A stretch of DNA of 64,000 nucleotides, taken from positions 25,514,646-25,578,645 of the forward strand of contig NC_088311.1 of NCBI RefSeq assembly GCF_910592395.1, written 5' to 3'. Positions 6,899-62,479 of the stretch are shown here, one piece after another (position 1 is the first letter of the stretch; every line of letters starts with the position of its first letter). This DNA comes from Lineus longissimus. Lineage: Eukaryota; Nemertea; Pilidiophora; Heteronemertea; Lineidae. The notes below the pieces were generated by a model. The model saw nothing but the letters and a program-made list of their open reading frames with translations, was not told the origin of the DNA and made no database searches. Both the position numbers and the translations under genes were made by a program.

Positions 6899-9800
6899 TT
6901 ATGATAGAAGTCGTTCAAGCTTCGCCTGGAGTTGCTTGAAGTTTGCTACCAGACTGGTGACGGCCGGATCGGTGCTACTCATTGCCTGCAGCTCAACCAG
7001 GTATCCAGCTAAAGCATCGAGACACACGGTCGTCAACTGTCTCCTGAAAGTACAAGAAAGGCACCGTCACACAGAGACTCAAAGGCAGCTTTGAAGACTT
7101 ACAAAATCAACTTCAAGCCTTAGCAACAGAGACCACACACATGACATGATGGAGCAAAACAGGACAAGTCTACACAGATTAGACACAGTTCTTCCAGCTG
7201 CGAGTCATACCTCTTGAACAAAATGCTTCCCTGGCTCAGAAACTTAACTTACATTAAGAATTGAAAAGATAGTTAAAGTAGTTATTATCTGCAATGTTTG
7301 AAGCCAGTTTGACCATTTGCCACAACTAATGCCTTGTCAAACATTCAACCCCTCAATCAAGGGGTGCTGGAGTGGAGACTTACCGCTCATAGTTGGGAAC
7401 TCGTGTTGGATTCTCGGTGAATGATGACAAGAGCTGGCAGACGACATGAAGGAGGTGAAGAGGCTTCTTGCTTGCCTCCCAGAACGGATCCTACAATGAA
7501 AACAATGTTAACCTCAAGAGGCTCTCATGTACCATACAAGAACGTTAACCTCAAGAAGCTCTCATGTACCATACAAGAACGTTAACCTCAAGAAGCTCTC
7601 ATGTACCATACAAGAACGTTAACCTCAAGAAGCTCTCATGTACCATACAAAACAAGTTAGGAATTACAAATGTAGAATATTTCTCTACATCCAGTCATAA
7701 AACAGGAGGAACTTTTTCAAACATGGCATGTTGCTGTTTCCATCGTTATTCATTTCCATTTGGGCTATCAAGTTGTGCTGTGGGTTATGAATAACCTGTA
7801 CTAGAGCCAGTGTTTAATAATGTTTGAATCTGACAGTGAGAATCCCCAATAGTGACCTCCCCTCACAAAACCCGCGCTGAGCCGATGTATCTACCTTTGA
7901 TTTGAAGAGCCTGTCATAAACCTCCTGGAGAGTGGCCAGTTTCACTCCAACCTTCTGCAGAATGGTGAACACCCATTTGATGTCAAAATTCTGCTGGCAG
8001 CTACGCTTCTCAAGATATTTCACAAGATAAGCTGAAAGAAAATGGAAAATGTTCTTACTCTACCATCAGTTGTCAATACTGCAATCACACTGACAGTCAC
8101 GTGTCAACGTTCCAAAGTTTCAATATGAAGACTGCCATTGGGATAAACTGCCATCATCTCTGTCCCACACAATGCATCAATGGAAGTAAAGTGACCTGCC
8201 TTTGATTACAAGCAAACAGATGAGTGGAGTGCAGTTATTCAATCAACTTGTGATTATACAACCTCTCTACACAGCAACCATTAAAAACCTACCTATTGGG
8301 AAATATCTCTCCGTTGATACGTAAAGTTGAGCCAAAGCGACGATCTTGTTACTCAGCGTGTTCATGCGTGACTGGGGAGGTAGTGCAGCAGTGGCCGTCA
8401 ACTCTACAATAAAGACACCATGCATCATTAGAGTCATTGAGATGGAAGCAGAGGATTTCTACACACACCATGCATCATTAGAGTCATTGAGAAGGAAGCA
8501 GAGGATTTCTACACAACAACAATTGAAGGGAATAATGAAGAATCAACTCCCTGCTGGTAAACTAAAGCTGGTCACACATGAAGCGCCAGGTGGTCGATGA
8601 GGAGGAGATGCAGCCTACCTTTCTCAATGATATCAGTCCAGATGGATTCAACTAGAGTCTGGTCGTAATGGCTAGCACAATGAACGATAGCCAACTTGCA
8701 TTCAGCCAGGGAGAACGGATTAGCAAAATCAACAAAGAGCTGAAAGGAAAAGACACTTCTGTTTCACTATCAAGCTTGCTATGGTGAATAATCCGGAAGC
8801 AATCTGCAAGCTTTCAAATCAATGGCCAATGGTGGAAATGATTCACGCTTGTACGAGGGATGTATTCAGTGCTTAGACTGACATGACCAAGTGCCCTTAC
8901 TGTGTATACTAATCACTTGAAGATGGCCTCTCTCCTCCTGCCTAAAGTCCCCCTTAAAGATGGCCTCTCTCCTCCTGCCTAAAGTCCCCCTTAAAGATGG
9001 CCTCTCTCCTCCTGCCTAAAGTCCCCCTTAAAGATGGCCTCTCTCCTCCTGCCTAAAGTCCCCCTTAAAGATGGCCTCTCTCCTCCTGCCTAAAGTCCCC
9101 CTTAAAGATGGCCTCTCTCCTCCTGCCTAAAGTCCCCCTTAAAGATGGCCTCTCTCCTCCTGCCTAAAGTCCCCCTTAAAGATGGCCTCTCTCCTCCTGC
9201 CTAAAGTCCCCCTTAAAGATGGCCTCTCTCCTCCTGCCTAAAGTCCCCCTTAAAGATGGCCTCTCTCCTCCTGCCTAAAGTCCCCCTTAAAGATGATTCA
9301 CATCAAATTTTTCCATCAAAAACTTACAGTGGTAATATCCAATAGCTCAGTATTGAGTCGACTCAGCGCTTCTTTTACTCTTGGAAGATCAGACGTCCAT
9401 CGTTGTAGCGTTTCCATCACCTGGAGCTGGAGACGAGCAACCTCCATCTTCTCTTCAAGTTCATGCAGGAATTCTCCCTCGCTTGCTGAGCCGGAATGCA
9501 TGGCGGAACTCTTAGCACACATGATAGCTCTCGACAGGTATTCAATTCTTGTACGGAGAGGAATGTCAGTGCTGGAAAGAGGCAAGTAATAAATGCCCAT
9601 ACTCCAGTCACCTGGCAGTTCAACATACCATCTCTCTCACACTGTTCATATGCATTCATTACACACAGTCATCATCTGCACAGTGAACATGATTGTTCGT
9701 GATTCCTTGCAATATGCCCCAAAAAAGGTTGATATAAAACGGTGTTGGGATAATTTCACTGACTTACAACTGGGCACATGTATAGACTTCTTCAAATACA

Positions 9801-12800
9801 AACTCTCTCAAAAATATCAACAGCTACTTCAGTCTGCCAGAATTCAATCAGAAACTGGTGTAATTTGACTTACCACACTCGGTCAGCAAGTTTGGCCTGA
9901 ATCTTTGCAGCAGCAGAATAATTCTTTGACTTCTCGTAATGCTTCCAGAGGAGATCAAGAATGTTGAGATCATCCGGACTGAACATGGCCTCCCTCTTCA
10001 GATATGCTTCCAAGAATGGTGACTGGATCTGCCAAACAGATGATAGACTTTTAAAAATCTACCTGACCTCCCAGCGAGACTCAGCGACACCAAGATTGGT
10101 GCTGATATCATACTGATGGATCTGCACACAAAGACAAGACACAAATGACGCTGTTATCTTTCTTTCTTAGAATGAAACACACTCAGGTCCCCCACCAAGC
10201 AGACTTAAGTCAAAGGCTCACCAGTCTGAAGCCCAAACATATACCCTCAGTCTTACCTCAAGTAACTTCTCTGTCAGCTGGTACTTTATCAACCAACTGT
10301 ACAACTCGACATGGAAGAGTTCATCAGTGGACTTGAGTCCAAGCTGTAACACTTGTTCACTCTGCAAATGAAACATCCAATTAGTACTGTATGTGGAGAG
10401 AATACAAGCATCCTGACTCACGGCCAACTTTACAATTCCTACTGTACTTAAGTATTGGAGGTTTCTTGATCATTCCTTCTCCTGTGTTGCTATCATGAGT
10501 GTTTGTTGTGTGTTATAGGCCTAGATGCTGCTTCTCAGCCAGGGCGGTAGAGTCCATCTAAGGCTGTGACATGCTAACCATGTCATAGGCACTAGGTACA
10601 AGGAGAATTGGGTTTACACCTTGATAACTCAAGTAAAGAAACAGGCAAGGTGATCTGCTGTGTGAACTATCACGTGGCTGAAACCACGAGACATCTTCTC
10701 TTGGACTGCCAAATAAACTCACATATTGTTCTGCCTCGGCATTGGACATCTGGTTTGGATCTGGAGCTGGTGGAGGTCCAGGCATCTGGGGGACGCTCGG
10801 AGCCTGGGGATGTTTACAACTGATGGTCATGAGGTTCTCCAATGTCTTAGTGATGCGCTTGTAAGCATCAGATCTGCAATAGGACAAACACCACATGATA
10901 TTAGAACCTGTTCACTTAGGTTGTACAGTAGCATAGATAAGGTAAGGTAAACCCTCACCAAAGTGTTTCATGACCAACAAAAGCTGACATTCCTCTGTAA
11001 AAGTGCAGCACTGAATGTAAAAAACACAAGATTTGTCCTCAACACAAATAATTATACAAGCTATAAACTGACTATCTTGTATGATTTCCTGAGAAACTTT
11101 CAAACGCTCAGCCGGCCATTAGGAATTTCTACCTGGCAATATAAGCATTGCGCCCCTCCAGGTCATCTCCTCTTGCTCCATTGTTATAGAAGTGCATGGC
11201 GAGCTGCTGCGGGTCTCGCTTCTCTGCCGCGGCCAGACACAGGTCAACTATCCCCTCAAAGTAGCGCACGCCGGCAAACTGTGAACACACCATTGCAAGA
11301 TCCAGCTGGGATGTCACGTTCTTGTACAGCTGTAAGGGAAGTGCAATCAAGTTTAGATGAGTCTGATTCACTACTTAGAATTCTTCTGTTCACTGAAGCT
11401 GAATCCAAGTTCCCAGTAAGAAGAAAGGGAAATGCATTAAGAATTCTTTTGGCCAGCTGATTTTCTACATTTTGAGCACAAGAACAAAAGCAACTGGAAT
11501 TGGATGGGGTCTTTTGGTGGGCCTAGCATAGACGCATGGTACAAGGAATCTTGGCTTTAAGTTCAAAGTAAAGCTATTTGCTCTTGGTTGCCAACCAGTG
11601 TAGCAGTGCCAGGAGTTGAAGACCTTGAGGCTAAGTCTAACACAGGACCATGCAGGGTCTCGTTCGTAAGTATGAAACAGACCATGAGTGCCTCCCTCAG
11701 CATCTTTTCCTTCTCTTGTTTATTCTGCACGACTTTGGCAGCTTTCAGGATCTCGTTGGCTTTGGAGCAGGTAGCATCTTCACAGCTGTACAATGACGGA
11801 CAGATCTCCCTGAGTCGATTACTGATGGCGTCAACTGTGGCATTATCGTTCAGGTAACAGTTGATGAGGCAGGTGATCAAGGCACAACACATCTGAAAGT
11901 ATCATCAATTAGGTTGGATGATTCATGCAAATGGTCCTTGCTCAATGTAACGAGATATGCTTCCATGAGATGAGAGCCTGAGAATGAAAGGGCAAATCAG
12001 CCTGAGAGAACTCACCTCTTTCCCATTCACCACCAGATTCCTAAACGTCATACTCTTCAACTGGTTCAGCTGGTCCTTGCTGAGAGCGGCCGCCACGATA
12101 TGGAACTGATGATCCGTAATGATCTTCCACAGTCCCAGGACCTCATTTGTTCTCTGTACCAACTGCTGCACATACTGCAGAGAGGCGTTTTCCTGTGCCT
12201 GAGCCTCCAGCTGGAACTTGCGGCGTTGTTGTTCGTCGTGTTGACTATCCGGGTAATGTCCAACGAGACGACTCTGCTGGATATTGGTGTAACCACCCAA
12301 ACTGGAAGAGAATCAAGACAAAACTCTCATCCTGGCATCTTCTCACCTACTTTTCCCTTATTTCTACTCTAGTTAACTTGTTTATCAGGATATTGGCAGG
12401 TCTGAACGCTCCATAATATGGATGATTAAGTGATTCCTACCTGTCTACTGCCATAGGTGACACAAACTGTCCATGAAATCTTTAAGTCCATCCAGCTGAC
12501 ACAGATGCCAGCTCAGTTCCTTCTATTCTTACCTGTCTACTGCTATAGGTGACACGAACTGTGAGTTCACGTCCATGAAATCTTTAAGTCCATCCAGCTG
12601 ACACAGATGCCAGCTCAGTTCCTTCTATTCTTACCTGTCTACTGCTATAGGTGACACAAACTGTGAGTTCACGTCCATGAAATCTTTAAGTCCATCCAGC
12701 TGACACAGATGCCAGCTCAGTTCCTTCTATTCTTACCTGTCTACTGCTATAGGTGACACGAACTGTGAGTTCACGTCCATGAAATCTTTAAGTCCATCCA

Positions 12801-15800
12801 GCTGACACAGATGCCAGCTCAGTTCCTTCCCTTCACAACGACTCGCCAGCTGGAAACAAACATAATATCATCAATGAAACTAAGATAAAGAAGAAAGAGA
12901 ATTAGTCAAACGAGAGGACTAGATATAGATACAACAGATATTGAGATGACTCTGCCATCTGAAATGGATGTCACTTGAATAACTCTACATATCATACATG
13001 CAAGGCTATTAACTGGTGGTCAGACTGAACCTCTGAGTCAGAGTGTTTGGTGGGGGAAGCGACTTTTTGTGGATCAACCAACCTTGCCACACATAGCATG
13101 AACAAAAGTATGTGCAAAAAGCAAACTTACAAACTGACTTTTCCCAGCAGGAGTTTGATAAGGAATATCCGAGACGATCTTGTTGTCCCACAGTGGACGA
13201 ATAATCCTGCTGAAATAGATACAGATGCCGTTGTGCTTTCCTGAGAATGTGACGTCAGCGATTGGTGCAGGTCCAGTACCACTGGATGATACCATTGGAT
13301 AAGGTGTCATAGGGTGTTGTCCGTACATGTAGTGGTCGCCGTAGTTGGGGTTCGGGGTGGACATGTGTTGTGGCTGGATACCATGTCCCGGTGTGAAGGC
13401 AAACGACTGTCCCCCTGTCTGGCTGTACATTGTCACGTTAGGAGGGTAGGCACTCGACTGCAAACCTGGAAAATCGAGTGATGATTGATGCAGTAAAGTT
13501 TGTGGGACTACAGGGGAATATTGGCTTGCACTTGCTAAGTCATTTGATGAATCTGTGCGACAAGATACCCAAAAGGCAACAGGCAGATTCTCGTGGCATC
13601 TCAATTTCTCCCCTCTTCCCAAACTCACCTTGTTGAGTTTGGTACCCAGTCGGTCCAACGTTACTAACAGCAGGGGATGATATCTGTGAACCAGAGAACG
13701 ATGGCTTCGGTTCCCCTCCGTAGAGGAAGAACGCCCGCGTTGCCCTCTCAGAAACTGACTGTTTGGCTTCTCCGTTGTGACAAGCTAATATCAGACAGGT
13801 GGCACAGGCTTGGTCCTCCTGTAAGAGATTTAGAAATACTTATCAATTTGACTATGTTCGGCTTCTCTTACAATGGATAGATCCTTACTCAAAGCACTTA
13901 GGCAACCCAGGGTCCCAGGGAAGTTAATGGATTTGCTCTGATACAGAGCATAGAGGATACTTGGGGATCATGACTTGTTGATCATAATGATGGAGATGTT
14001 CACCAAGAACTTAATCATGGTCAGGTTTTTCAGGTAGAAATGCAAGGAAAAAGGCTTCCACGGTGAGGACGCATGTACATCTTTTACTTTCTAATGCAAA
14101 GGCTAAGCACAACTCACCCCGTGAAGTTTAAAGAATGCCTGGACCTGCTCATTGTCTGATCCATTGTTACTCGCCAGTAACTGCTGAAGTTGGTTAACTG
14201 GATGGTACTTGTCCATGAGATGACTACCCTGAAACATAACATCATCAAATAGAGGTATGGTTCAACACTTCTTGTGTGACCACAAGAGGTGGATAGTAAC
14301 TGCTGAAGTTGGTTAACTGGATGGTACTTGTCCATGAGATGACTACCCTGAAACATAACATCATCAAATAGAGGCATGGTTCAACACTTCTTGCGTGACC
14401 ACAAGAGGTGGATAGTAATTGTTGAAGTTGGTTAACTGGATGGTACTTGTCCATGAGATGACTACCCTGAAACATAACATCATCAAATAGAGGCATGGTT
14501 CAACACTTCTTGCGTGACCACAAGAGGTGGATAGTAACTGCTGAAGTTGGTTAACTGGATGGTACTTGTCCATGAGATGACTACCCTGAAACATAACATC
14601 ATCAAATAGAGGCATGGTTCAACACTTCTTGCGTGACCACAAGAGGTGGATAGTAACTGCTGAAGTTGGTTAACTGGATGGTACTTGTCCATGAGATGAC
14701 TACCCTGAAACATAACATCATCAAATAGAGGCATGGTTCAACACTTCTTGCGTGACCACAAGAGGTGGATAGTAACTGCTGAAGTTGGTTAACTGGATGG
14801 TACTTGTCCATGAGATGACTACCCTGAAACATAACATCATCAAATAGAGGCATGGTTCAACACTTCTTGCGTGACCACAAGAGGTGGATAGTAACTGCTG
14901 AAGTTGGTTAACTGGATGGTACTTGTCCATGAGATGACTACCCTGAAACATAACATCATCAAATAGAGGCATGGTTCAACACTTCTTGCGTGACCACAAG
15001 AGGTGGATAGTAACTGTTGAAGTTGGTTAACTGGATGGTACTTGTCCATGAGATGACTACCCTGAAACATAACATCATCAAATAGAGGCATGGTTCAACA
15101 CTTCTTGCGTGACCACAAGAGGTGGATAGTAACTGCTGAAGTTGGTTAACTGGATGGTACTTGTCCATGAGATGACTACCCTGAAACATAACATCATCAA
15201 ATAGAGGCATGGTTCAACACTTCTTGCGTGACCACAAGAGGTGGATAGTAACTGCTGAAGTTGGTTAACTGGATGGTACTTGTCCATGAGATGACTACCC
15301 TGAAACATAACATCATCAAATAGAGGCATGGTTCAACACTTCTTGCGTGACCACAAGAGGTGGATAGTAACTGTTGAAGTTGGTTAACTGGATGGTACTT
15401 GTCCATGAGATGACTACCCTGAAACATAACATCATCAAATAGAGGCATGGTTCAACACTTCTTGCGTGACCACAAGAGGTGGATAGTAATTGTTGAAGTT
15501 GGTTAACTGGATGGTACTTGTCCATGAGATGACTACCCTGAAACATAACATCATCAAATAGAGGCATGGTTCAACACTTCTTGCGTGACCACAAGAGGTG
15601 GATAGTAACTGCTGAAGTTGGTTAACTGGATGGTACTTGTCCATGAGATGACTACCCTGAAACATAACATCATCAAATAGAGGCATGGTTCAACACTTCT
15701 TGCGTGACCACAAGAGGTGGATAGTAACTGCTGAAGTTGGTTAACTGGATGGTACTTGTCCATGAGATGACTACCCTGAAACATAACATCATCAAATAGA

Positions 15801-18800
15801 GGCATGGTTCAACACTTCTTGCGTGACCACAAGAGGTGGATAGTAACTGTTGAAGTTGGTTAACTGGATGGTACTTGTCCATGAGATGACTACCCTGAAA
15901 CATAACATCATCAAATAGAGGCATGGTTCAACACTTCTTGCGTGACCACAAGAGGTGGATAGTAACTGTTGAAGTTGGTTAACTGGATGGTACTTGTCCA
16001 TGAGATGACTACCCTGAAACATAACATCATCAAATAGAGGCATGGTTCAACACTTCTTGCGTGACCACAAGAGGTGGATAGTAACTGTTGAAGTTGGTTA
16101 ACTGGATGGTACTTGTCCATGAGATGACTACCCTGAAACATAACATCATCAAATAGAGGCATGGTTCAACACTTCTTGCGTGACCACAAGAGGTGGATAG
16201 TAACTGCTGAAGTTGGTTAACTGGATGGTACTTGTCCATGAGATGACTACCCTGAAACATAACATCATCAAATAGAGGTATGGTTCAACACTTCTTGCGT
16301 GACCACAAGAGGTGGATAGTAACTGTTGAAGTTGGTTAACTGGATGGTACTTGTCCATGAGATGACTACCCTGAAACATAACATCATCAAATAGAGGCAT
16401 GGTTCAACACTTCTTGCGTGACCACAAGAGGTGGATAGTAACTGCTGAAGTTGGTTAACTGGATGGTACTTGTCCATGAGATGACTACCCTGAAACATAA
16501 CATCATCAAATAGAGGTATGGTTCAACACTTCTTGCGTGACCACAAGAGGTGGATAGTAACTGCTGAAGTTGGTTAACTGGATGGTACTTGTCCATGAGA
16601 TGACTACCCTGAAACATAACATCATCAAATAGAGGCATGGTTCAACACTTCTTGCGTGACCACAAGAGGTGGATAGTAACTGCTGAAGTTGGTTAACTGG
16701 ATGGTACTTGTCCATGAGATGACTACCCTGAAACATAACATCATCAAATAGAGGCATGGTTCAACACTTCTTGCGTGACCACAAGAGGTGGATAGTAACT
16801 GCTGAAGTTGGTTAACTGGATGGTACTTGTCCATGAGATGACTACCCTGAAACATAACATCATCAAATAGAGGCATGGTTCAACACTTCTTGCGTGACCA
16901 CAAGAGGTGGATAGTAACTGCTGAAGTTGGTTAACTGGATGGTACTTGTCCATGAGATGACTACCCTGAAACATAACATCATCAAATAGAGGCATGGTTC
17001 AACACTTCTTGCGTGACCACAAGAGGTGGATAGTAACTGCTGAAGTTGGTTAACTGGATGGTACTTGTCCATGAGATGACTACCCTGAAACATAACATCA
17101 TCAAATAGAGGCATGGTTCAACACTTCTTGCGTGACCACAAGAGGTGGATAGTAACTGCTGAAGTTGGTTAACTGGATGGTACTTGTCCATGAGATGACT
17201 ACCCTGAAACATAACATCATCAAATAGAGGTATGGTTCAACACTTCTTGCGTGACCACAAGAGGTGGATAGTAACTGCTGAAGTTGGTTAACTGGATGGT
17301 ACTTGTCCATGAGATGACTACCCTGAAACATAACATCATCAGATAGAGGTATGGTTCAACACTTCTTGCGTGACCACAAGAGGTGGATAGTTCACAGGCC
17401 CTATAACTTACATGAGAACTGAGCAGTACATATGACCTAATCGGCTCCACATGTTGCATGACCACAAGAGGTTGATAGTTCCAAGGCCCGGTAACTTACA
17501 TGAGAACTGAGCAGTACATATGACCTAATCGGCTTGACATGTTGCATGACCACAAGAGGTGGATAGTTCACAGGCCCTATAACTTACATGAGAACTGAGC
17601 AGTACATATGACCTAATCGGCTTGACATGTTGCATGACCACAAGAGGTGGATAGTTCACAGGCCCTATAACTTACATGAGAACTGAGCAGTACATATGAC
17701 CTAATCGGCTTGACATGTTGCATGACCACAAGAGGTGGATAGTTCCAAGGCCTGGTAACTTACATGAGAACTGAGCAGTACATATGACCTAATCGGCTCC
17801 ACATGTTGTGTGACCACAAGAGGTGGATAGTTCACAGGCCCTATAACTTACATGAGAACTGAGCAGTACATATGACCTAATCGGCTTGACATGTTGCATG
17901 ACCACAAGAGGTGGATAGTTCACAGGCCCTATAACTTACATGAGAACTGAGCAGTACATATGACCTAATCGGCTTGACATGTTGCATGACCACAAGAGGT
18001 GGATAGTTCACAGGCCCTATAACTTACATGAGAACTGAGCAGTACATATGACCTAATCGGCTTGACATGTTGCATGACCACAAGAGGTGGATAGTTCCAA
18101 GGCCCGGTAACTTACATGAGAACTGAGCAGTACATATGACCTAATCGGCTCCACATGTTGTGTGACCACAAGAGGTGGATAGTTCACAGGCCCTATACAC
18201 TTACATGAGAACTGAGCAGTACATATGACCTAATCGGCTCCACATGTTGTGTGACCACAAGAGGTGGATAGTTCACAGGCCCTATACACTTACATGAGAA
18301 CTGAGCAGTACATATGACCTAATCGGCTTGACATGTTGCATGACCACAAGAGGTGGATAGTTCCAAGGCCCGGTAACTTACATGAGAACTGAGCAGTACA
18401 TATGACCTAATCGGCTTGACATGTTGCATGACCACAAGAGGTGGATAGTTCCAAGGCCCGGTAACTTACATGAGAACTGAGCAGTACATATGACCTAATC
18501 GGCTTGACATGTTGCATGACCACAAGAGGTGGATAGTTCCAAGGCCCGGTAACTTACATGAGAACTGAGCAGTACATATGACCTAATCGGCTTGACATGT
18601 TGCATGACCACAAGAGGTGGATAGTTCCAAGGCCCGGTAACTTACATGAGAACTGAGCAGTACATATGACCTAATCGGCTCCACATGTTGTGTGACCACA
18701 AGAGGAGGGTCAGACTTTTCAAGGATCTTTCCATTTTGTGGATATTCAAGAACGTTGTATGGGGTCCCTTCGCTCGTCACTTCCGACATTGCCCACGTTC

Positions 18801-21800
18801 GGCCATCAACCGGAGACGTTCCCTGCAAAAACCAGATATTTTGTTAGTATATTCGAAGTTGAAATGAAAGCGGTCAATTACATTTAGGTTTATAGCCAGT
18901 TATCTAACAAGTTGGAGGAGTAGCTGCATTAGACAGTGCTCCCAGTGAGCTGTTTTGCCTTTGATTACTCTGTCACTAGACGGACCAGGTTCTCCAAATC
19001 GATGGAGAAACACTGATAAGGAGGTTTGCATGTCCAACTAAATAAAGTGGATTTGATATGGGAAACTTTGTCAATTTGCACTTTGCCAATGGTGTCATGG
19101 TACGACTGAACCGACAGCATGACTAATGTCTTTGAACCATCCACCGGTGAAGTGGAACAGGATAGTATCTAGATGTATCTGAAGTGCCACTAATGACATC
19201 GCCACATTGCCCAGAGGCCAAGGTTTATGTTGAAGATGACGATAGTCTGATATTCAAAATGACAAAAATGTATAGCATTGCATCACAGCAGTGATCTTGT
19301 TTAAACAGCTTACGAAAGTTTCCATGAGCTGTGAATGGAAAGGGAACGTATCGCCACCAATCGTCCACAGAAGATCGCTTTCCTCTGTTTGACTTGACGC
19401 CACAACGAGGGTGCCGCGATTATAGTGCGCCATGTGGATGTGACTTGGTCGCTGGGTTGCAGCACTGGCAGTGAATCCCGGAGGAAGACGCACGTGAACC
19501 AGAGACAGCATGGAGGGCCTCTTGTCTCGTGTATGGAACGGTGAAGTCGTGAAATATAACCTAACACCTGGAAAAAAATAATTTTAAGAGTCAATCTAAC
19601 GTTTTGAACCTAAATTCACTCAAAATCTTGCCTTCAATGCAACCAATATCCAACTGCATTCTCGCCCAGGAGTAGATGGTAACGACTGCTACTAACTTCA
19701 AATGGGGCAACACCCATCGCTAGTTTATACTGTTGGATCAAGCATTCCCACAGGAGTTGTATCAAGGCTTAGGAAAGGTCCTTACCAGTACTTGTTATGG
19801 CTACTAGGTGAATATTGATAGACTCTGATTTCGGAATTGCTGCAATGTGGACTATTGTCTTGAAGTTGGATCGGTCTATCGTTCTAAAATAAGATGAAGA
19901 AATGTGTAAGATATAAAAAAAGTATATAACTCGGTCATCCAACAAAGATGATGCAGGCCTGGAAATCCAAGCTGTGAGGACAGTCGTTGAATAAACTTGC
20001 CTCGACTGCACGAGTTTGACACGGCAAGAAGTGAGAATGAGATGAGTAAGAAGAAGGTGAACCCACTTGGCAATATGCGCTGCATTCTGCATGGTCGTCT
20101 GCTGTGATACCGCGGCAACACGACTCATCCCAGTTCTATCCTCACCAAGATCATAAACCTGGAAGGCAAGTAGAGAAATTACACATCAACAATACAGACC
20201 CCTTGACATTTTTCAAGACCAGTATTTCTATGTTGGTCAGGCTGGGTTTGGCCAGAAGACATGGTGCCAATAGCCTAACTCTTTGGGAGGAAGAGCAAAC
20301 TCAAGTTGTCAGGCTGGGTTTGGCCAGAAGACATGGTGCCAATAGCCTAACTCTTTGGGAGGAAGAGCAAGCTCAAGTTGTCAGGCTGGGCTAAGTATCT
20401 AAGCTCCTATTCAACCCAAAGACCAGTATTTCTATGTTGGTCAGCTGGGTTTGGCCAGAAGACATGGTGCCAATAGCCTAACTCTTTGGGAGGAAGAGCA
20501 AACTCAAGTTGTCAGGCTGGGTTTGGCCAGAAGACATGGTGCCAATAGCCTAACTCTTTGGGAGGAAGAGCAAGCTCAAGTTGTCAGGCTGGGCTAAGTA
20601 TCTAAGCTCCTATTCAACCCAAGACATGGTGCCAATAGCCTAACTCTTTGGGAGGAAGAGCAAGCTCAAGTTGTCAGGCTGGGTTTGGCCAGAAGACATG
20701 GTGCCAATAGCCTAACTCTTTGGGAGGAAGAGCAAGTTGTCAGGCTGGGTTTGGCCAGAAGACATGGTGCCAATAGCCTAACTCTTTGGGAGGAAGAGCA
20801 AGCTCAAGTTGTCAGGCTGGGTTTGGCCAGAAGACATGGTGCCAATAGCCTAACTCTTTGGGAGGAAGAGCAAGCTCAAGTTGTCAGGCTGGGCTAAGTA
20901 TCTAAGCTCCTATTCAACCCAAGACATGGTGCCAATAGCCTAACTCTTTGGGAGGAAGAGCAAGCTCAAGTTGTCAGGCTGGGTTTGGCCAGAAGACATG
21001 GTGCCAATAGCCTAACTCTTTGGGAGGAAGAGCAAGCTCAAGTTGTCAGGCTGGGCTAAGTATCTAAGCTCCTATTCAACCCAAGACATGGTGCCAATAG
21101 CCTAACTCTTTGGGAGGAAGAGCAAGCTCAAGTTGTCAGGCTGGGCTAAGTATCTAAGCTCCTATTCAACCCAAGACATGGTGCCAATAGCCTAACTCTT
21201 TGGGAGGAAGAGCAAGCTCAAGTTGTCAGGCTGGGTTTGGCCAGAAGACATGGTGCCAATAGCCTAACTCTTTGGGAGGAAGAGCAAGCTCAAGTTGTCA
21301 GGCTGGGCTAAGTATCTAAGCTCCTATTCAACCCAAGACATGGTGCCAATAGCCTAACTCTTTGGGAGGAAGAGCAAGCTCAAGTTGTCAGGCTGGGCTA
21401 AGTATCTAAGCTCCTATTCAACCCAAGACATGGTGCCAATAGCCTAACTCTTTGGGAGGAAGAGCAAGCTCAAGTTGTCAGGCTGGGTTTGGCCAGAAGA
21501 CATGGTGCCAATAGCCTAACTCTTTGGGAGGAAGAGCAAGCTCAAGTTGTCAGGCTGGGCTAAGTATCTAAGCTCCTATTCAACCCAAGACATGGTGCCA
21601 ATAGCCTAACTCTTTGGGAGGAAGAGCAAGCTCAAGTTGTCAGGCTGGGCTAAGTATCTAAGCTCCTATTCAACCCAAAGACAACCAATTCAGCTAAATT
21701 CACAACCATGATTTCCCCCCAGCCATGGCTCAACGACCCATGGGCAAGTTCTCATATATCGGTATATTGGAAGATTTATCAATATAGGGTTATTTATGAC

Positions 21801-24800
21801 AAACATTTTTGATACAAGTAGTCAAAATTCTGTTGGCAATCATTCAAAGTCATTATGAAAACTGGAAGAAAAATGTTGCGACAAAGTTGAGGCGATTTTT
21901 GTGGCTACTCGTGGACTCTGTGATGTTTGAGCCATACCTGAATCGTGCCCTTCTCCGACCTGGTATAAATGATATGTCGACTCTCATCAATGGTCACCTG
22001 GCTAAGAGAATCTGCAAGACAAAACTTTGTTTGAAAGTAACGGAGAACAACCAAGTTGACTCAAACACATCAACTCGTTTCTCTTCAGGTTCGGTGGTCG
22101 ATTCCAAAACATGACCAAATAAGCATATCCATAAAAGGTTTCATCTATTCATTCACCTTATTGATTTATTAACTTTTCATCTATCTAATTCAACTGGCCA
22201 CGGCTGCCATGAGGTTTCCCAGCAACAACCTTAGCAACCACAAGCAACAATGAAAAGCAGGCTGAAGTTCATTCAAATCATAGCAATATGCGAAGGAAAA
22301 TGGAATAAAAGTGTCCCAATAGAAATATTAAAAGAGGGGATATAAGCAAGACTCGTGGACCCATGATGGCCACTGCCGTGGGAGCGAGAGTTGAGAGAGT
22401 TACAATGACATGTCATTCTTTCTTTAAAGTCTGAAAACTGACATGATTCAAAAACACACCCACATTCACCCACTTACCATCATCAGCAAAAGAGAAGTTG
22501 AGAAAGGAAGGCACCAGGAAAGACAAGGAACTAGTCGAGTGGTTGATTTTACGACACTTTCTGCTAAACCACCCATCTTCTGCCTGAAGTAGGATATCAA
22601 TACATTTACAGGAAATACAACCACTGAGTCAGTTTCAGGAATCAATGTCATCAGATAATGTCCCACTTTTCTCTGACAGATGGAAATGATGGGCCTGATT
22701 GCACTTTCCAAGAACCTCACGAGGTTTGTACCAGATATAGCACTCACTAGGACATGCAGGACAATGGGCTTTCATTCAAACACCCACAGGTTCTCAAATT
22801 CGTACAATATTAAAATGAAAGTGAAAGAACCCAGGTTTTGTTGGACCAGTAAATATCTTGTGAAGAAATCAATAAATGACACTCTGGTGACACATGTAGT
22901 TCCATTGATAATGGCCTCAATGAGACGGCTTATCATATCAATATATTATTTCACAGGTAAAAAACAACCCTTCAACAAAAGTAAGCAGTAGAATGTTGTG
23001 GCCATTCATGATTATGGAATTCAAATTGGCCGTGCTTTGAGGAACGACCACAACATGTTCACATGACTGTCACATGTTTTCTGGTTTGTTCAGATGCCGC
23101 TGAATGACTCCACAAATTAAAAGGCAAATGAGCAACAAACGAATTGGTGAGTACATTTATATCATAATCCCACTTCCTGTTCATCAGTTTAATCTTGGAC
23201 TATCTTGTCAGTTAGAAGGGGTTTTTAAACATGGGCTCTTGTCAAATTCAGTTTCCATGTGATGTGTGGCTAACATGTGAGTGATGTACATCATTTGTAC
23301 ATGAGACATGTACATGAGCTGTGCAGAGACAATTGTACCAGATTGTAGTTCTGTTTCTTGTGACCGGAGAATCTCAATGTTGATTTATACTGTTCTCACC
23401 TGATAAACTAATTCATAGAGACAACCATCTTTGCCTGCCATGAATATCCTGCCATTGTCTGTGCCAGCTATCGTAGTGATGTACGTGCCATCAGTCGATA
23501 GTGAAAACAGCGGATCAGGCAGGAGGTGCATGTCTTCGTCTTCATAATCTGCATCTTTTGGACCTGAAGAAAAGATTAAAATGCTTGTTTTGTTTAACAC
23601 ATCTCATTGATACAACTGAAGAGATTGACTGACAAGGACTTAGACAGGAAAACATGACACTTCTCGTGGATCTGTTCCATACCTACCTTCATACGGCTGA
23701 GAAAAACTAACTCCAAGGAGTACGATCTCGACAGGAGTGGCCAGACACAAGAGATACTGTATATGTGGCTGGAATATACCTACAACAAGGAAGGAGGCCT
23801 ATATTAGCACACACAACAAAAAACCATAACAAGTAAAAACTAAATATTGTTGGCAAGTGCAGTGACCTACTTATTGAATGAATGTGCAGATCAAAAAGAC
23901 CAAAAATTGATTCAATTCACAAGGATTGGAGGTTCATATTCACAGGCTGACTAATTTCAGTGAAGATCAGAAAAATTACTTTGAAAGAGAGGAAGTGCAA
24001 TTACATGTACTTACCCGGTTTGGGACTGATCAAGCCAGCACTCAGGATCGTCTCACTGAGGCCATCAAAGTAGGCCACATCTCTCCTGAAGGAACATGTG
24101 TGAACAATGGTTAATTTCAAAGGATTACAATGTGTCAAGCCCTGTGACAATGAAAGTAGAGAAATGATACTCAATCTTGTTTTCTGAAATCTCACTAGCT
24201 CCAGGACCAATGCTATTCTCTCTTTATTTCCAACATAGAATCACAATATGATGCTTGCATGTTGCTGGCATGGTATCCTTGTCCCTTTGGCATCCACCAT
24301 TACACACAGCTTTTTCACACTGTGTGATCTGAACTCAACACAACAAAACTAAGTACTTACCCGTTTTCATATTTCCAAACAAATATATCACTATCGATAC
24401 AAATGTAAGCACGTTTAATGGCTGGGAAAAGTCCCATCAGGCAGTTGCATTGCATATCTGAGGGCTGTGAAGGAAATATCAAATAATGTTGAACAGAAGG
24501 AGATCCACTTGACAAATGACCTGATACATGCCCGATACATGCCACAGCACATTCACATGATCAGCCATGATCATGTAGACTATGGAGAGAAAGTGATAGG
24601 TTTCAAAAGGATACGCCCGAACTGTTCAATGATGTCATGAGGTAACGGGTGTTTTCTGACAGCACTCACTTCACTAACTGATTCCAGGCCAATCTTTGAA
24701 TCGGCCAAACTTGGATAGTCATTGTCATGAAGTCCACTCACGCTAGGCTGGGCTGGAACAAAAGGCAATACATGTTTTTTCAAATTATAATGAAAAAGTA

Positions 24801-25556
24801 GCTCAGGTTCCTCTCTTATTCATAAACCACAAAATCTTTTCTGTGCTTTACTGTTGTGCCAGCTATAAAATCATTTGAAAGAGAAAGCCATAAATTAAAG
24901 AAGGCCACTGTTGTGGATGAATGTGAAAGTAAAAGCCTCTACAGTAACAATAACTCAATGTATTTTAACAGACATCACAATGAAATGGAGACTTCACTAA
25001 TACAAACTCTTGTTCCATCATGCCCGAATGAACAACAGCAGCAAATAATATGATAAAACTTGCAGAAATCAATAAAAAAACTTCTTATTTGAGTGATAAA
25101 TCATGAAGTAATAATGATAATGGACAAGCAAGCAAAAGCCGATTGTTCACGATAGACGCCGATCTTGTCAATATATCATTACCGGTACCGGTAGGCCTAT
25201 ATAATAATATATCAGCAAAAATCAAAACACAACATACTAATATATAATTAGAATTCTACCAGTAATTTTGTGGGCGGTGTTAAGCTTATTCTTTATCCTA
25301 GGCTCACCTAAGCAGAACAGTTTAACATGTTTTCGTAGATTTGAATATATCGTGCAGTAGAGTAGGTACAATCATAGCAGCAATAAACGGCAGTCTAACA
25401 AAACATACTGTGAGAAGTGACCTTGAGCAGATCAGAAAGGTCGCTGTAACTGCCATCAGCTTGGAGATGCTTGTCCACAAGGCGACTTGAATGTTCCAGG
25501 ACATCTTGAGAGGTCATCAGCATTCTGGCCCCGGACATGGACATGTAAGACGTCAT
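6899..25556 (-). CDS. NUP155: Nucleoporin NUP155, complete, 28 coding exons
   Basis: Large scaffold nucleoporin of the inner ring of the nuclear pore complex. Exons in transcript order: 25556-25409, 24752-24615, 24457-24361, 24085-24015, 23779-23687, 23563-23400, 22583-22478, 22011-21938, 20158-20067, 19883-19786, 19567-19314, 18822-18646, 14228-14118, 13818-13629, 13465-13131, 12849-12737, 12301-12016, 11892-11683, 11329-11133, 10873-10723, 10361-10257, 10028-9874, 9571-9328, 8739-8619, 8403-8293, 8031-7895, 7490-7384, 7043-6899. All phases join; the total is 4230 nt, 1409 residues plus stop, against about 1391 in human. Family hallmarks: D-N-G-R-I-F[10 protein letters not shown] in the N-terminal beta-propeller (exon 6), [14 protein letters not shown] (exon 15), [15 protein letters not shown] in the C-terminal alpha-solenoid (exon 23). 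The start is the first ATG after a probable 5'-UTR acceptor at 25605-25606. Exon 18 has a weak GTCTGT donor. Exons 12, 13 and 16 overlap minisatellites that copy their splice sites. Confidence 0.97.
7508..7648. repeat. Minisatellite, 37 bp x about 3.5, near the NUP155 exon 27 acceptor
   Basis: The unit contains GTTAACCTCAAGAAGCTCTC and ATGTACCATACAA. It begins about 15 bp upstream (in transcript sense) of the exon 27 acceptor and so occupies the branch-point and polypyrimidine region. Confidence 0.9.
8412..8517. repeat. Direct duplication, about 55 bp x 2, near the NUP155 exon 25 acceptor
   Basis: Copies share CACCATGCATCATTAGAGTC and GAAGCAGAGGATTTCTACAC. They start about 10 bp from the exon 25 acceptor. 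Confidence 0.85.
8928..9296. repeat. Minisatellite, 37 bp x about 10, just after NUP155 exon 23
   Basis: The unit is AAGATGGCCTCTCTCCTCCT plus GCCTAAAGTCCCCCTTA. Copies are nearly identical. The array ends 32 bp from the exon 23 donor. Confidence 0.97.
12430..12838 (-). repeat. Minisatellite carrying the NUP155 exon 16 5' splice site, 102 bp x 4
   Basis: Each full unit is about 83 nt of exon 16 coding sequence plus about 19 nt of intron, joined at the G|GTAAGA donor. The authentic donor (12731-12736) is in the copy contiguous with the rest of exon 16. Two further GTAAGA donors are at 12629-12634 and 12527-12532. The fourth copy, near 12436, is shorter and its donor has changed to GTAGGA. Although 102 is a multiple of three, extension past the authentic donor meets TAA at once. 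Confidence 0.93.
14177..17392 (-). repeat. NUP155: Minisatellite carrying the NUP155 exon 13 3' splice site, 119 bp x about 27
   Basis: Each unit, in transcript sense, has the end of the intron with an ATGTTATGTTTCAG acceptor, the first 52 or so nt of exon 13 (encoding [17 protein letters not shown]), then a 21-nt linker containing CCACCTCTTGTGG. Only the copy at 14228 continues into the rest of exon 13. Copies are nearly identical, with a few recurrent substitutions. The series of 83-codon minus-strand frames every 119 bp is an artefact of this periodicity. Confidence 0.97.
17390..18710 (-). repeat. NUP155: Minisatellite carrying the NUP155 exon 12 5' splice site, 88 bp x about 15
   Basis: Each unit is about 60 nt from the 3' end of exon 12 (encoding [20 protein letters not shown]), a CAT|GTAAGT donor, and about 28 nt of intron. 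The authentic donor is the first one in transcript order, at 18640-18645. Fourteen more follow, down to about 17408. Two intronic variants (CAAGGCCCGG and CACAGGCCCTAT types) are interspersed along the array. Confidence 0.97.
20212..21682. repeat. Composite minisatellite of 72-bp and 90-bp units, NUP155 intron 8
   Basis: Both unit types share a 62-63 bp core containing AAGACATGGTGCCAATAGCC and CTCTTTGGGAGGAAGAG. Type A ends TTTGGCCAG (72 bp); type B ends CTAAGTATCTAAGCTCCTAT plus TCAACCC (90 bp). In the second half of the array A and B follow a partly regular order. The array begins about 55 bp from the exon 9 acceptor. Confidence 0.95.
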
Positions 25557-42100: not shown

Positions 42101-45100
42101 ACTACTGACATAGATATCCCGTAAGGTACTAATGGATTCTCGATATATGATGCACAAAGTACACTAGAAACAGTACATTAGTAAAGCCACTTTCCAAATG
42201 GACATCTTATAATCAAACCTGGTCAAGGGTCACGCTCAGGGCACCTTTTCAGACACACCTTTGATATATGGAGCGAATCTTTTTGCTCCTGAAACTGTGA
42301 TAATTAAGTATTGTATGTAACGTGGATCATACCATGTCTCCATTATGTAGCATGAATCATGCACCGTGGGCGACAAGACTGTGATGTAAACAGGATAGCA
42401 TTTAAATCATGCATTACTTTTGTCATGCATCTTAGATTACGCTTTCTGCCTCCAGACCCTGGCTTAGCCAACAGTTCTATCATAGAAAAAGCTGCTTGTA
42501 GTGAAAAAGTTGAGTAAATTTTGAATTATTTCTAGCAAGCAGATTTGCTAAAGTTGAAATGCTCACACGTGTGAAGCCCCCGTGAAATCTGTAGATAGTC
42601 CTTAAAAACATTCAATAAATTACCCAAACAACTTTTTCAAGGAGGAGTTGTTTGTGAATATAAATCATAGGTAGTTTTACAGCTGCTCGTTTTGTTTCTA
42701 CCGGGGAATCTGCAATCCCGCCTCCGTGGCATTTCTCCAATCGCACACGGACTTGGGACGAGGTTGGTATTTTCATTAGCATGACTGCAGACGACGGTCC
42801 ATCATTCCCCCATCTCCCCCACCAAAGCTTTGACATGGCCAGGCCCTCGGGGTTTAGCAAGACATTGAGAGTCTGTCGGGACCTCGAATCCATACTCATT
42901 GGTTGAACCATTCACATCATCTCACCTTTAAGTGACTCCTGATAGCGTTTAACGTGCAAGTCGATGTTGTCTTCTTCTTCATGATCACATCTGTCGCTGG
43001 CTCTGAAAAGGGACACTGAACCAATAAGGTATACACCGACCTAGTAGAACAGGAAACATGGCAGCATGCGGGAAAGCAGTCTCTATGCAGCCACTTCATC
43101 TCCGGCCTAATGACAGTGTAATCAATGCATGTCTTGAAGGACGAATGATGTCACAAATGTCAGGTGATTACGGTGGATTCATTCTCTAAAAATCACGAGA
43201 GAAGGAGCGGAACGTATATGGATGAGTAGGAATCCATGTCAAACTTTCATAAAATCACAAAGATTTATTTGATGAAAAACTAACCCTTGCAAATGTGTAC
43301 AAGGCTATTATAGGCCGAAACTATCATGTTCTTCATTTTTGTGCTGTGGATTGTTCGCAAATTGATTCCAAACATGCTCGAAATCTTCGCAGTTTAGAAA
43401 AAAACCTTACCACTTACTTTTGGGCCATCAGAAGACCTCTCCTCATTTGAGAACAGGTTCTGCACCTCAGACCCCGAGTCAATGCTTTCACACTCTAACA
43501 CTTACTCCTGATCACTAGACGACCTCTCCTCATTTGAGAACAGGTTCTGCACCTCAGACCCCGAGTCAATGCTTTCACACTCTAACACTTACTCCTGATC
43601 ACTAGACGACCTCTCCTCATTTGAGAACAGGTTATGCAACTCAGACACCGAGTCAGTGCTTTCAAACTCTAACACTTACTCCTGATCACTAGACGACCTC
43701 TCCTCATTTGAGGACAGACTCTACATCTCAGACACCGAGTCAATGCTTACATACTTTAGCACTTACTCCTGATCACTTGACGACCTCTCCTCAGTTGAGA
43801 ACAGGTTCTGTACCTCAGACACCGAGTCAGTGCTTTCAAACTCTAACACTTACTCCTGACCACTGGACGACCTCTCCTCATTTGAGGACAGACTCTACAC
43901 CTCAGACACCGAGTCAATGCTTACATACTTTAGCACTTACTCCTGACCACTGGACGACCTCTCCTCAGTTGAGAACAGACTCTACACCTCAGACACCAAC
44001 TCAATGCTTTTCAATTTTAACACTTACTCCTGATCACTAGACGACCTCTCCTCATTTGAGAACAGGTTCTGCACCTCAGACACCGAGTCAATGCTTTCAT
44101 ATTTCTTAATTGGTCTGTAAGCTCTGTCTGGAGACGACCGTGTGCACACAACCGGTTGTCTGAAAAGAGAACAGGCATTTTCATAGAGAGACAATAAAAT
44201 GCACCATTGAAATAGCCAGCATTTCATCTTGTAATCGATGGATGACACCTCTGATAAAAGCATGTCAGCTCATAATTAATCCACGTGGTGGTGGGGGGGG
44301 GGGGGGGATGTACGCCATATTCAGAACTGGCTGAAAGGCGGTGTGTCGATAGATAGATGATATACATATGTGTCTATTTATGTGTCACCTCCTCATGTGA
44401 ACCAGCCTATGTGAGACACCATACATAAATACATTTTAGAACTTGTATATTAGGCCATGTCGCCCTGGTTGGGATATGGTTCACCTCAATCCTAAAATTA
44501 TTGTACAGGGACACACTCATATTGGAGACGGGAGTAGGCCGATTACAGTCACAACCGTTATATTGTTGATGTTTCAATCGGGAGTAGCCCTACATATAAA
44601 GCCACAGCCATTGACAAGACTCGACGTCCCAGATGGCCAATAGAATTAGCTGGTAGTGGTCTTAATCTCTGCTTGAGAAAAAAAATAGGTGTTTTGTGAC
44701 ATGGCTCGTTCGACCTTGGTTCTGGTCTGAATGCCCCAGCTGATGAAATGTCACAATATTTGCCATGGCCATCAAGACTAACTTGATGTTGACGGAGAAA
44801 TGTTGCCCAGTTGATGGTGACAACGATCTGTAGGTGTTCCAGGTTTTATGACCGTATTTTGCTGGTGCAATGTGCCGGCATTTGTATCTGTAATAGAGAA
44901 TACTTCGCAGACCTACACTCCGAGCTGTAGGCTTACCAATGACCACCACCAACATCAAAGTAATTTTTATATAGCTGAGTTTGTCTGAAAGTGGAATGCA
45001 GCACTGCTATTTAGTAGCATCGAGAGAGACAAGAAACCTGATTCGTCTTGTGTGAGGACATGCTATTTGTAGACATGCTTTCTGTTGATACCCTCGACCT

Positions 45101-62450: not shown

Positions 62451-62479
62451 CAAGAGGAGGCTAATCAGCCGTCACACCC

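What the first reader, a model, noticed from the sequence alone, without database searches (positions are those of the whole stretch)
14229..18645. A 4.4-kb NUP155 intron made entirely of copied splice sites
The intron between exons 12 and 13 has no unique sequence. In transcript order it is 14 extra copies of the exon 12 end with its GTAAGT donor, then 26 extra copies of the TTTCAG acceptor with the start of exon 13. That gives about 15 x 27 possible donor-acceptor pairs. Because all donors precede all acceptors, no internal cassette exon can form, but nested removal of introns inside introns is possible. Only the outermost pair restores the reading frame. A downstream donor runs into a TAG about 24 codons on. 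The next acceptor upstream shifts the frame (119 nt), leading to a stop early in exon 14, and earlier acceptors hit stops inside the array. A conserved nucleoporin must therefore be spliced through hundreds of exact decoys. This may be a solved problem (exon definition, stepwise splicing) or a source of regulated nonsense-mediated decay.
Basis: partly seen in the sequence, partly recalled or inferred. Interest (0 to 1): 0.88.

Follow-up and report, generated by a model that had tools for sequence, protein, structure and literature searches.

The report
Intron built from copied splice sites
In the bootlace worm, one intron of a conserved nuclear-pore gene consists almost entirely of tandem copies of its own two ends, so the cell must find the one useful pair of splice sites among 405 look-alike pairs; such boundary repeats are known from amphioxus, and this looks like a large two-ended case that makes a rule of splice-site choice testable.

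Summary
The window lies near a telomere of Lineus longissimus (Nemertea). NUP155 reads intact (28 exons, 1438 aa). Intron 12 (14229-18645, minus strand) splits without remainder into 14 donor units (1234 nt), an 89-nt core and 26 acceptor units of 119 nt; all 15 donors read GTAAGT, all 27 acceptors TTTCAG. Of 405 pairs only the outermost encodes NUP155; 404 give early stops. By anatomy it is a two-ended "mirage", a minisatellite over exon-intron boundaries, a class described in amphioxus. A sequence relic indicates that the donor duplication came first. NUP155 intron 16 and the neighbouring gene LOC135486846 carry further donor arrays. Samples near contig ends average 20% tandem repeats against 4% in interiors, and the number of boundary-spanning arrays in NUP155 fits random duplication. 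Most likely it is a neutral minisatellite, tolerated because exon definition picks the outermost pair: nearby sequence cannot tell real from decoy sites, and strict innermost-first removal fails because 15 is not 27. No transcript data were available, and nothing points to regulated NMD. New variant of a known kind.

The parts
14229..18645 (-). NUP155 intron 12, 4417 nt
   Evidence: Outer junction aligns to NUP155 without a gap; gene model
18646..18822 (-). NUP155 exon 12, 177 nt (authentic)
14118..14228 (-). NUP155 exon 13, 111 nt (authentic)
17412..18645 (-). 14 donor units of 88-89 nt: authentic donor at 18645, then decoy copies; each unit holds the exon 12 end and the intron start with GTAAGT (15 donors with the one at 17411)
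17323..17411 (-). 89-nt core between the innermost donor and the innermost acceptor; what is left if every extra copy is removed, so probably the size of the former intron
14229..17322 (-). 26 acceptor units of 119 nt; each holds the intron end with TTTCAG and a copy of the first 53 nt of exon 13
12469..12829 (-). Second boundary array in NUP155: 102-bp unit spanning the exon 16 donor; 4 donors (12736 authentic; 12634, 12532, 12440 extra), the 3 extra ones all give early stops
43430..44099 (-). Boundary array in the neighbouring gene LOC135486846: 87-bp unit spanning an exon donor; GTAAGT at 44027 (authentic), 43940, 43853, 43766, 43679, 43592, 43505 and, in other context, just past the TRF end at 43417
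43506..43571 (-). 66-nt exon inside that array implied by the deposited L. longissimus protein (kind of support unknown)
6899..25556 (-). NUP155 coding region, 28 exons, 1438 aa

Best explanation
It is a two-ended 'mirage': two minisatellites, one over the donor boundary and one over the acceptor boundary of what was probably an 89-nt intron, in a minisatellite-rich subtelomere of Lineus longissimus. An 88-bp tandem duplication over the exon 12 donor came first and a 119-bp duplication over the exon 13 acceptor later; both then expanded by ordinary repeat turnover (inferred from a relic and from divergence). The array is tolerated because splicing normally takes the outermost pair: exon definition pairs each splice site with the far end of its own exon, so the shortest exons (177 and 111 nt) win over decoy-extended ones (265, 230 nt and longer). 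Mis-spliced products carry early stops and are probably removed by nonsense-mediated decay. Shown: anatomy, coding outcome of each pair, copy identity, genomic setting. Inferred: order of events, which sites are used, NMD, neutrality.
For: Anatomy and exact decomposition. Intact gene with a gapless outer junction. 404 of 405 pairs unproductive, with stops at least 2524 nt before the last junction. Nearby sequence cannot discriminate: each of 14 decoy donors matches the authentic one over at least 35 nt exon side and 6 nt intron side, one over 60 + 96 nt; each of 26 decoy acceptors over at least 19 nt intron side and 44 nt exon side. Only 1 donor and 2 acceptors keep the exon at or under 250 nt. 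In five human-cell minigenes with two identical donors and 365-nt flanking introns the upstream donor was used exclusively (PMC9225289, passages); introns 11 and 13 here are 491 and 299 nt. Amphioxus Adh3 data and globin RT-PCR suggest that mirages do not disturb regular splicing (PMC3087553, passages). Order: the authentic acceptor flank holds an 18-nt exact word of exon 12 (0 of 20000 shuffles reach 18, longest 14), read as a relic of the donor array inside the acceptor unit; mean pairwise identity is 94.7% for donor units and 99.1% for acceptor units. Setting: the contig end is TTAGGG repeat and the intron lies about 61-66 kb from it; tandem repeats average 20.0% in 12 samples near contig ends against 3.6% in 57 interior bins, one-sided Mann-Whitney p 0.006. 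Neutrality: random duplication predicts 2.58 of 7 NUP155 arrays over one boundary, 3 observed.
Against: No transcript was available. The innermost pair is only 89 nt apart, a distance at which intron definition would favour it. In the human data the exon-centric effect is weaker at acceptors: the upstream acceptor is preferred overall, and long flanking introns significantly reduce this preference (PMC9225289 section 9), so the acceptor side may leak. The human rules are carried over to a nemertean. The neighbouring gene has 1 boundary array where 0.17 of 5 were expected, and its deposited protein implies use of an inner donor and an array-derived exon, so inner copies may sometimes be used. 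Two protein searches listed no near-identical NUP155 (best listed identity 55% and 56%; candidate lengths 656-2088 and 514-1634 aa; 120 rows listed each) though another Lineus protein is held, so the public annotation may be broken here. The near-end samples are very uneven (0 to 99.9%), and only one contig end was read.
Confidence: 0.74

Rival explanations
1. Nested removal: inner introns are spliced first (starting with the 89-nt core), later steps use outer pairs, and the outermost junction forms last.
For: A pair of two inner sites leaves the outermost sites in the RNA (geometry). The core is 89 nt. Nested splicing and intrasplicing are described in vertebrate genes (PMC8234774 passages), and nested introns in human nascent RNA (PMC13105047 passages).
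Against: 15 donors against 27 acceptors: strict innermost-first removal ends with the true donor joined to the 13th acceptor from the outside; choosing pairs at random at each step succeeds in 19%. Use of one outermost site with a decoy partner is a dead end.
Confidence: 0.1
2. Poison intron: decoy use is regulated and sets the NUP155 level through nonsense-mediated decay.
For: 404 of 405 pairs give early stops far upstream of the last junction; the three extra donors of intron 16 do too.
Against: All inner-donor products share one stop in the first extension, so these are not independent signals. No data on regulation or conservation were available. The same kind of array occurs in an unrelated neighbouring gene.
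Confidence: 0.05
3. Costly allele: the expanded array substantially lowers correct NUP155 splicing, and shorter alleles segregate in the population.
For: Acceptor units are nearly identical (99.1%), which fits recent expansion or homogenisation. Length instability is reported for amphioxus mirages (PMC3087553 passages).
Against: The coding sequence is intact over 28 exons. Only one haplotype was seen.
Confidence: 0.08
4. Assembly artefact.
For: Tandem arrays can be mis-assembled in general; one round of short-read polishing was applied (PMC8593623 passages).
Against: 79-fold PacBio long reads, HiFi libraries, hifiasm (PMC8593623 passages). Units differ by point changes, and the edge acceptor copy shares with exon 12 a base that the inner 26 lack.
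Confidence: 0.03

Closest known systems
Amphioxus 'mirages' (Adh3; globins BflGb6 and BflGb9; PGBD5; others)
   Same: Minisatellite-like tandem units that span an exon-intron boundary and repeat splice signals; either the 5' or the 3' boundary can be affected; reported not to disturb regular splicing (PMC3087553 passages; PMC3902484 passages).
   Different: Here one intron has both ends amplified, with 14 + 26 extra copies and no unique sequence left. In the passages read, BflGb6 has 6 or 3 units (acceptor side), BflGb9 one extra copy (exon 3' boundary) and PGBD5 2 or 7 and 3 or 6 repeats, depending on the assembly. The host is a nemertean. The Adh paper cited for the term is not held, so its copy numbers were not seen.
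Exon-centric against intron-centric splice-site proximity rule
   Same: Competing splice sites of equal strength, where position decides (PMC9225289 abstract, passages and section 9).
   Different: There, minigenes with two donors and human transcript data; here, 15 donors and 27 acceptors in a natural gene, with the two rules predicting opposite winners.
Nested introns, intrasplicing, recursive splicing, stwintrons
   Same: Introns within introns could form from inner pairs.
   Different: Here the inner sites are tandem copies of the outer ones and the numbers on the two sides differ. The unit acceptor is followed by GGTAGTC, not by a GTRAGT ratchet donor. Stwintrons (abstract start) need a splice signal interrupted by another intron; none is seen here.
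Intron gain by tandem genomic duplication or from internal tandem repeats
   Same: Tandem duplication over splice-like sequence can turn exon copies into intron (PMC4974935, title and abstract start; PMC2812944 passages; model in PMC3087553).
   Different: Here an existing intron was enlarged; no new intron is shown in NUP155. LOC135486846 may show a gained exon, but an automated amphioxus PGBD5 model also made an exon from such repeats and its authors excluded it for lack of transcript support (PMC3902484).

Membership tests
Mirage (boundary minisatellite) | Tandem unit spans an exon-intron boundary | tested here: met
   Both arrays, by coordinates and protein homology
Mirage (boundary minisatellite) | Units repeat the splice signals | tested here: met
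   15 of 15 GTAAGT, 27 of 27 TTTCAG
Mirage (boundary minisatellite) | Normal mRNA is made despite the copies | not testable with these tools
   Only indirect: the outermost pair alone gives NUP155 and the gene is intact
Mirage (boundary minisatellite) | Copy number varies between alleles or cells | not testable with these tools
   One haplotype only; near-identical units would fit it
Recursive (ratchet) splicing | Acceptor directly followed by a donor, AG/GTRAGT | tested here: not met
   Acceptor units read TTTCAG/GGTAGTC
Nested intron removal | Strict inner-to-outer removal ends at the productive pair | tested here: not met
   15 donors against 27 acceptors
Nested intron removal | Inner junctions or lariats in nascent RNA | not testable with these tools
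   No RNA data
Regulated poison intron | Decoy use changes with condition and NMD | not testable with these tools
   No RNA data

The most novel reading that the evidence does not exclude
The copy numbers on the two sides are a heritable, perhaps somatically variable, dial. Exon-centred and intron-centred pairing compete for the same identical sites, the 89-nt core being removed as a by-product, and the balance set by array length adjusts how much NUP155 mRNA escapes decay. Many Lineus subtelomeric genes would carry such dials, and array copies would occasionally be recruited as new exons, as the LOC135486846 protein suggests.
Probability: 0.1. Interest if true: 0.8.

Novelty: new variant of a known kind. 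Interest (0 to 1): 0.6.

Why it matters
Look-alike splice sites in 405 pairings, one productive, are a natural experiment on how the spliceosome pairs sites: the exon-centric rule predicts the outermost pair and the intron-centric rule the innermost 89-nt one, so one long-read cDNA data set could decide between them in this gene. Within the papers found here the case also extends boundary minisatellites beyond amphioxus, places them near a telomere, and shows how an intron can grow about 50-fold without new sequence. It warns annotators that gene models can fail at such loci.

Tried and rejected
Amphioxus as source: first suspected because of the mirage literature; rejected because NUP155 is only 50% identical to Branchiostoma belcheri, groups with the nemertean Tubulanus at support 100/99 (31 rows), and the ORF at 36112-38325 is 100% identical to a Lineus longissimus protein over 96% of the ORF.

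Dispersed element: not seen for the acceptor unit. A whole-genome search with 501 bases of it listed 10 matches, all within 14176-17831 of the window, that is, inside this locus's arrays; that search scores only its best candidates, so copies elsewhere are not excluded. The same search with the donor unit did not complete.

Strong splice sites concentrated in arrays: a scan of 34 array units against equal-length non-array segments with a donor score cut-off of 8.0 found 0 of 34 (expected 0.13). The cut-off was too strict, 26 of the 27 NUP155 donors being below it, so this says nothing.

Mirage rate elsewhere: 58 matches of the chaperonin family PF00118 were listed in the genome. I fetched five of the gene places and tested 68 match edges: 0 had tandem copies, although these genes carry 5 arrays (7.6% of 20,505 bases). 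In NUP155 3 of 54 boundaries do. Edges of family matches are not exact exon ends, so this is only a rough control; the other listed gene places were not tested.

Annotation of the gene in public sets: two protein searches listed no near-identical NUP155. Not decisive.

Selection for stop codons in the units: not argued, because the stops of inner-donor products are one shared event.

Splice-model numbers: assumed decay lengths of 20 to 400 nt give the outermost pair 98.5% to 5.3% of choices. These are illustrations, not measurements.

The first gene-model script failed; the sequence at the problem exon was read and the script rerun with looser thresholds. The random-duplication model counts the composite intron 8 array once and uses approximate exon ends for LOC135486846.
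Full report
WHERE IT IS. The window maps to contig 4 of a 391,118,348-base, 30-contig genome, positions 25,514,646-25,578,645. The source is the bootlace worm Lineus longissimus. The ORF at 36112-38325 (minus) is 100% identical over 96% of its length to an L. longissimus protein, LOC135486846. NUP155 groups with the nemertean Tubulanus polymorphus at support 100/99 in a 31-row tree, and the published assembly of this species is 391 Mb (PMC8593623, abstract start). The last 646 bases of the contig are TTAGGG repeat. By these coordinates the intron lies about 61-66 kb from a chromosome end.

THE OBSERVATION. On the minus strand NUP155 runs from 25556 to 6899 in 28 exons and encodes 1438 aa without an internal stop. 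Intron 12 is 14229-18645. It holds 15 donors 88 or 89 nt apart and 27 acceptors 119 nt apart; all 15 donors read GTAAGT and all 27 acceptors TTTCAG. The intron is 14 donor units (1234 nt) + 89 nt + 26 acceptor units (3094 nt) = 4417 nt, with nothing left over. The outermost junction is right by homology: a 217-residue query joined from exons 11-14 aligns with a solved NUP155 chain (7fik_W; Xenopus by recall) at E 6.3e-67, without a gap at the 12/13 junction.

WHAT EACH PAIRING MAKES. All 405 pairs were built and translated. One, the outermost, gives the full protein. 378 use an inner donor and stop inside the exon 12 extension; with the first inner donor the stop lies 20 codons past exon 12. 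25 join the true donor to an acceptor two or more units inward and stop inside the array. One, the next acceptor, stops 25 nt into exon 14. Length alone would leave 135 of 405 in frame. Every early stop lies at least 2524 nt before the last exon junction, so the products are expected NMD targets (50-55 nt rule, recalled). The stops are not evidence of selection: inner-donor products share one stop.

HOW IT AROSE. Removing all extra copies leaves an 89-nt intron, within the size range of the other introns of the gene (76-1779 nt). The flank of the authentic acceptor contains an 18-nt exact copy of exon 12 sequence; in 20000 shuffles of the flank the longest shared word was 14. I read that word as the truncated end of the donor array, caught inside the acceptor unit, so the donor duplication came before the acceptor duplication. 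The two unit types share a 21-nt word across this joint. Divergence agrees: mean pairwise identity is 94.7% for 15 donor units and 99.1% for 27 acceptor units. The order is an inference, and so is the expansion mechanism (slippage or unequal exchange).

SETTING AND NULL MODEL. Tandem repeats cover 27% of the window and 4.1% of nineteen 10-kb interior samples. In 3-kb pieces, 12 samples about 45-50 kb from contig ends average 20.0% and 57 interior bins 3.6% (one-sided Mann-Whitney p 0.006). The near-end samples vary from 0 to 99.9%, and only contig 4's right end was checked for telomere repeat. Further samples inward from that end gave 11.8% (8 kb), 19.6% (93 kb), 12.5% (143 kb), 54.8% (193 kb) and 0% (293 and 493 kb). 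If arrays in NUP155 started as random duplications and only those inside introns or over one boundary survived, 2.58 of 7 would span one boundary; 3 do. For LOC135486846 0.17 of 5 is expected and 1 is seen. In NUP155 boundary arrays therefore need no special attraction to splice sites; the neighbouring gene shows a small excess. In five chaperonin genes elsewhere in the genome 0 of 68 tested edges had tandem copies, a rough control.

OTHER CASES IN THE WINDOW. NUP155 intron 16 has a 102-bp donor array with 4 donors; the 3 extra ones all give early stops. LOC135486846 has an 87-bp donor array with 7 copies of the exon-end donor, the authentic one included, and an eighth GTAAGT in other context. 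Placed on the DNA, the deposited protein of that gene uses the outermost donor, then a 66-nt exon from inside the array through a cryptic acceptor, then an inner donor. By eye the Tubulanus homologue lacks the insert (sequences). Whether RNA supports this is unknown to me. If it does, it is exon gain from such an array, close to the model proposed for amphioxus globins (PMC3087553, passages). A caution: in amphioxus PGBD5 an automated model also made an exon from such repeats, and the authors excluded it (PMC3902484, passages).

HOW IT PROBABLY WORKS. Real and decoy sites cannot be told apart nearby. Decoy donors match the true one over at least 35 nt of exon and 6 nt of intron, one over 60 + 96 nt; decoy acceptors match over at least 19 nt of intron and 44 nt of exon. 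What differs is the distance to the other end of the exon. With an exon limit of 250 nt, 1 donor and 2 acceptors qualify; with 300 nt, 2 and 2. In human cells, two identical donors in an exon between 365-nt introns led to exclusive use of the upstream one in five minigenes, and the switch from intron to exon definition is put at flanking introns above 200-250 nt (PMC9225289, passages). Introns 11 and 13 are 491 and 299 nt. So exon definition predicts the productive pair. Against it, the innermost pair is 89 nt apart, and at acceptors the human data show a general preference for the upstream site that long flanking introns only reduce (PMC9225289 section 9). Some leakage on the acceptor side is therefore plausible.

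NESTED REMOVAL. A pair of two inner sites leaves the outer sites intact, so some mistakes could be repaired by later steps. But with 15 donors and 27 acceptors a strict inner-to-outer order ends with the true donor on the 13th acceptor from the outside, and random repeated choice succeeds in 19%. Nested steps may occur but cannot be the rule that makes NUP155. An unequal copy number is itself a useful diagnostic.

WHAT IS KNOWN. Tandem repeats over exon-intron boundaries are called mirages in amphioxus: Adh3, globins BflGb6 (6 and 3 units in two haplotypes) and BflGb9, PGBD5 (2 or 7 and 3 or 6 repeats, by assembly). They are reported not to disturb regular splicing (PMC3087553 and PMC3902484, passages). 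The original Adh paper is not held. The listings of the library searches made here (several capped) showed no nemertean case and no intron with both ends amplified; that is a statement about these listings only. I file this case as a mirage by anatomy: two features tested and met, two (normal mRNA, allelic variability) not testable here. It is a new variant by scale, two-endedness and host.

LIMITS. No RNA data, one haplotype, no related genome. Two protein searches listed no near-identical NUP155 within their length ranges (best listed identity 55% and 56%), which may reflect a broken annotation or an incomplete database. Gene boundaries other than exon 12/13 rest on homology and simple splice scores; the donor of intron 2 (GGC/GTATCC) is poor.

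Noticed in passing
window 43430-44099, minus strand: LOC135486846 has a 7-copy donor array (plus an eighth GTAAGT), and the deposited protein includes an exon taken from inside it: a possible recent exon gain from a repeat, or a model error.
   Followed up: partly
window 12469-12829, minus strand: A second boundary array in the same gene, at the exon 16 donor of NUP155.
   Followed up: yes
window 1-64000; contig 4 right end: Subtelomeric region with 27% tandem repeats; samples near contig ends are richer in tandem repeats than interiors, but very unevenly.
   Followed up: partly
window 20215-21683, minus strand: NUP155 intron 8 (1779 nt) holds a composite array with nested periods (72, 90, 138, 162, 203, 252).
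   Followed up: no
window 24614, minus strand: Donor of NUP155 intron 2 reads GGC/GTATCC, a very poor match to consensus, though the protein alignment supports it.
   Followed up: no
window 4853-5023, plus strand: ORF with an ShK-like domain (Pfam PF01549, E 2.8e-6).
   Followed up: no
window 60761-62451: 18.9-copy array of a 90-bp unit; by eye the minus-strand unit looks open in one frame. Coding or not was not tested.
   Followed up: no
public protein sets: No near-identical Lineus NUP155 protein listed in two searches although another Lineus protein is present; the array may have broken the gene model.
   Followed up: partly
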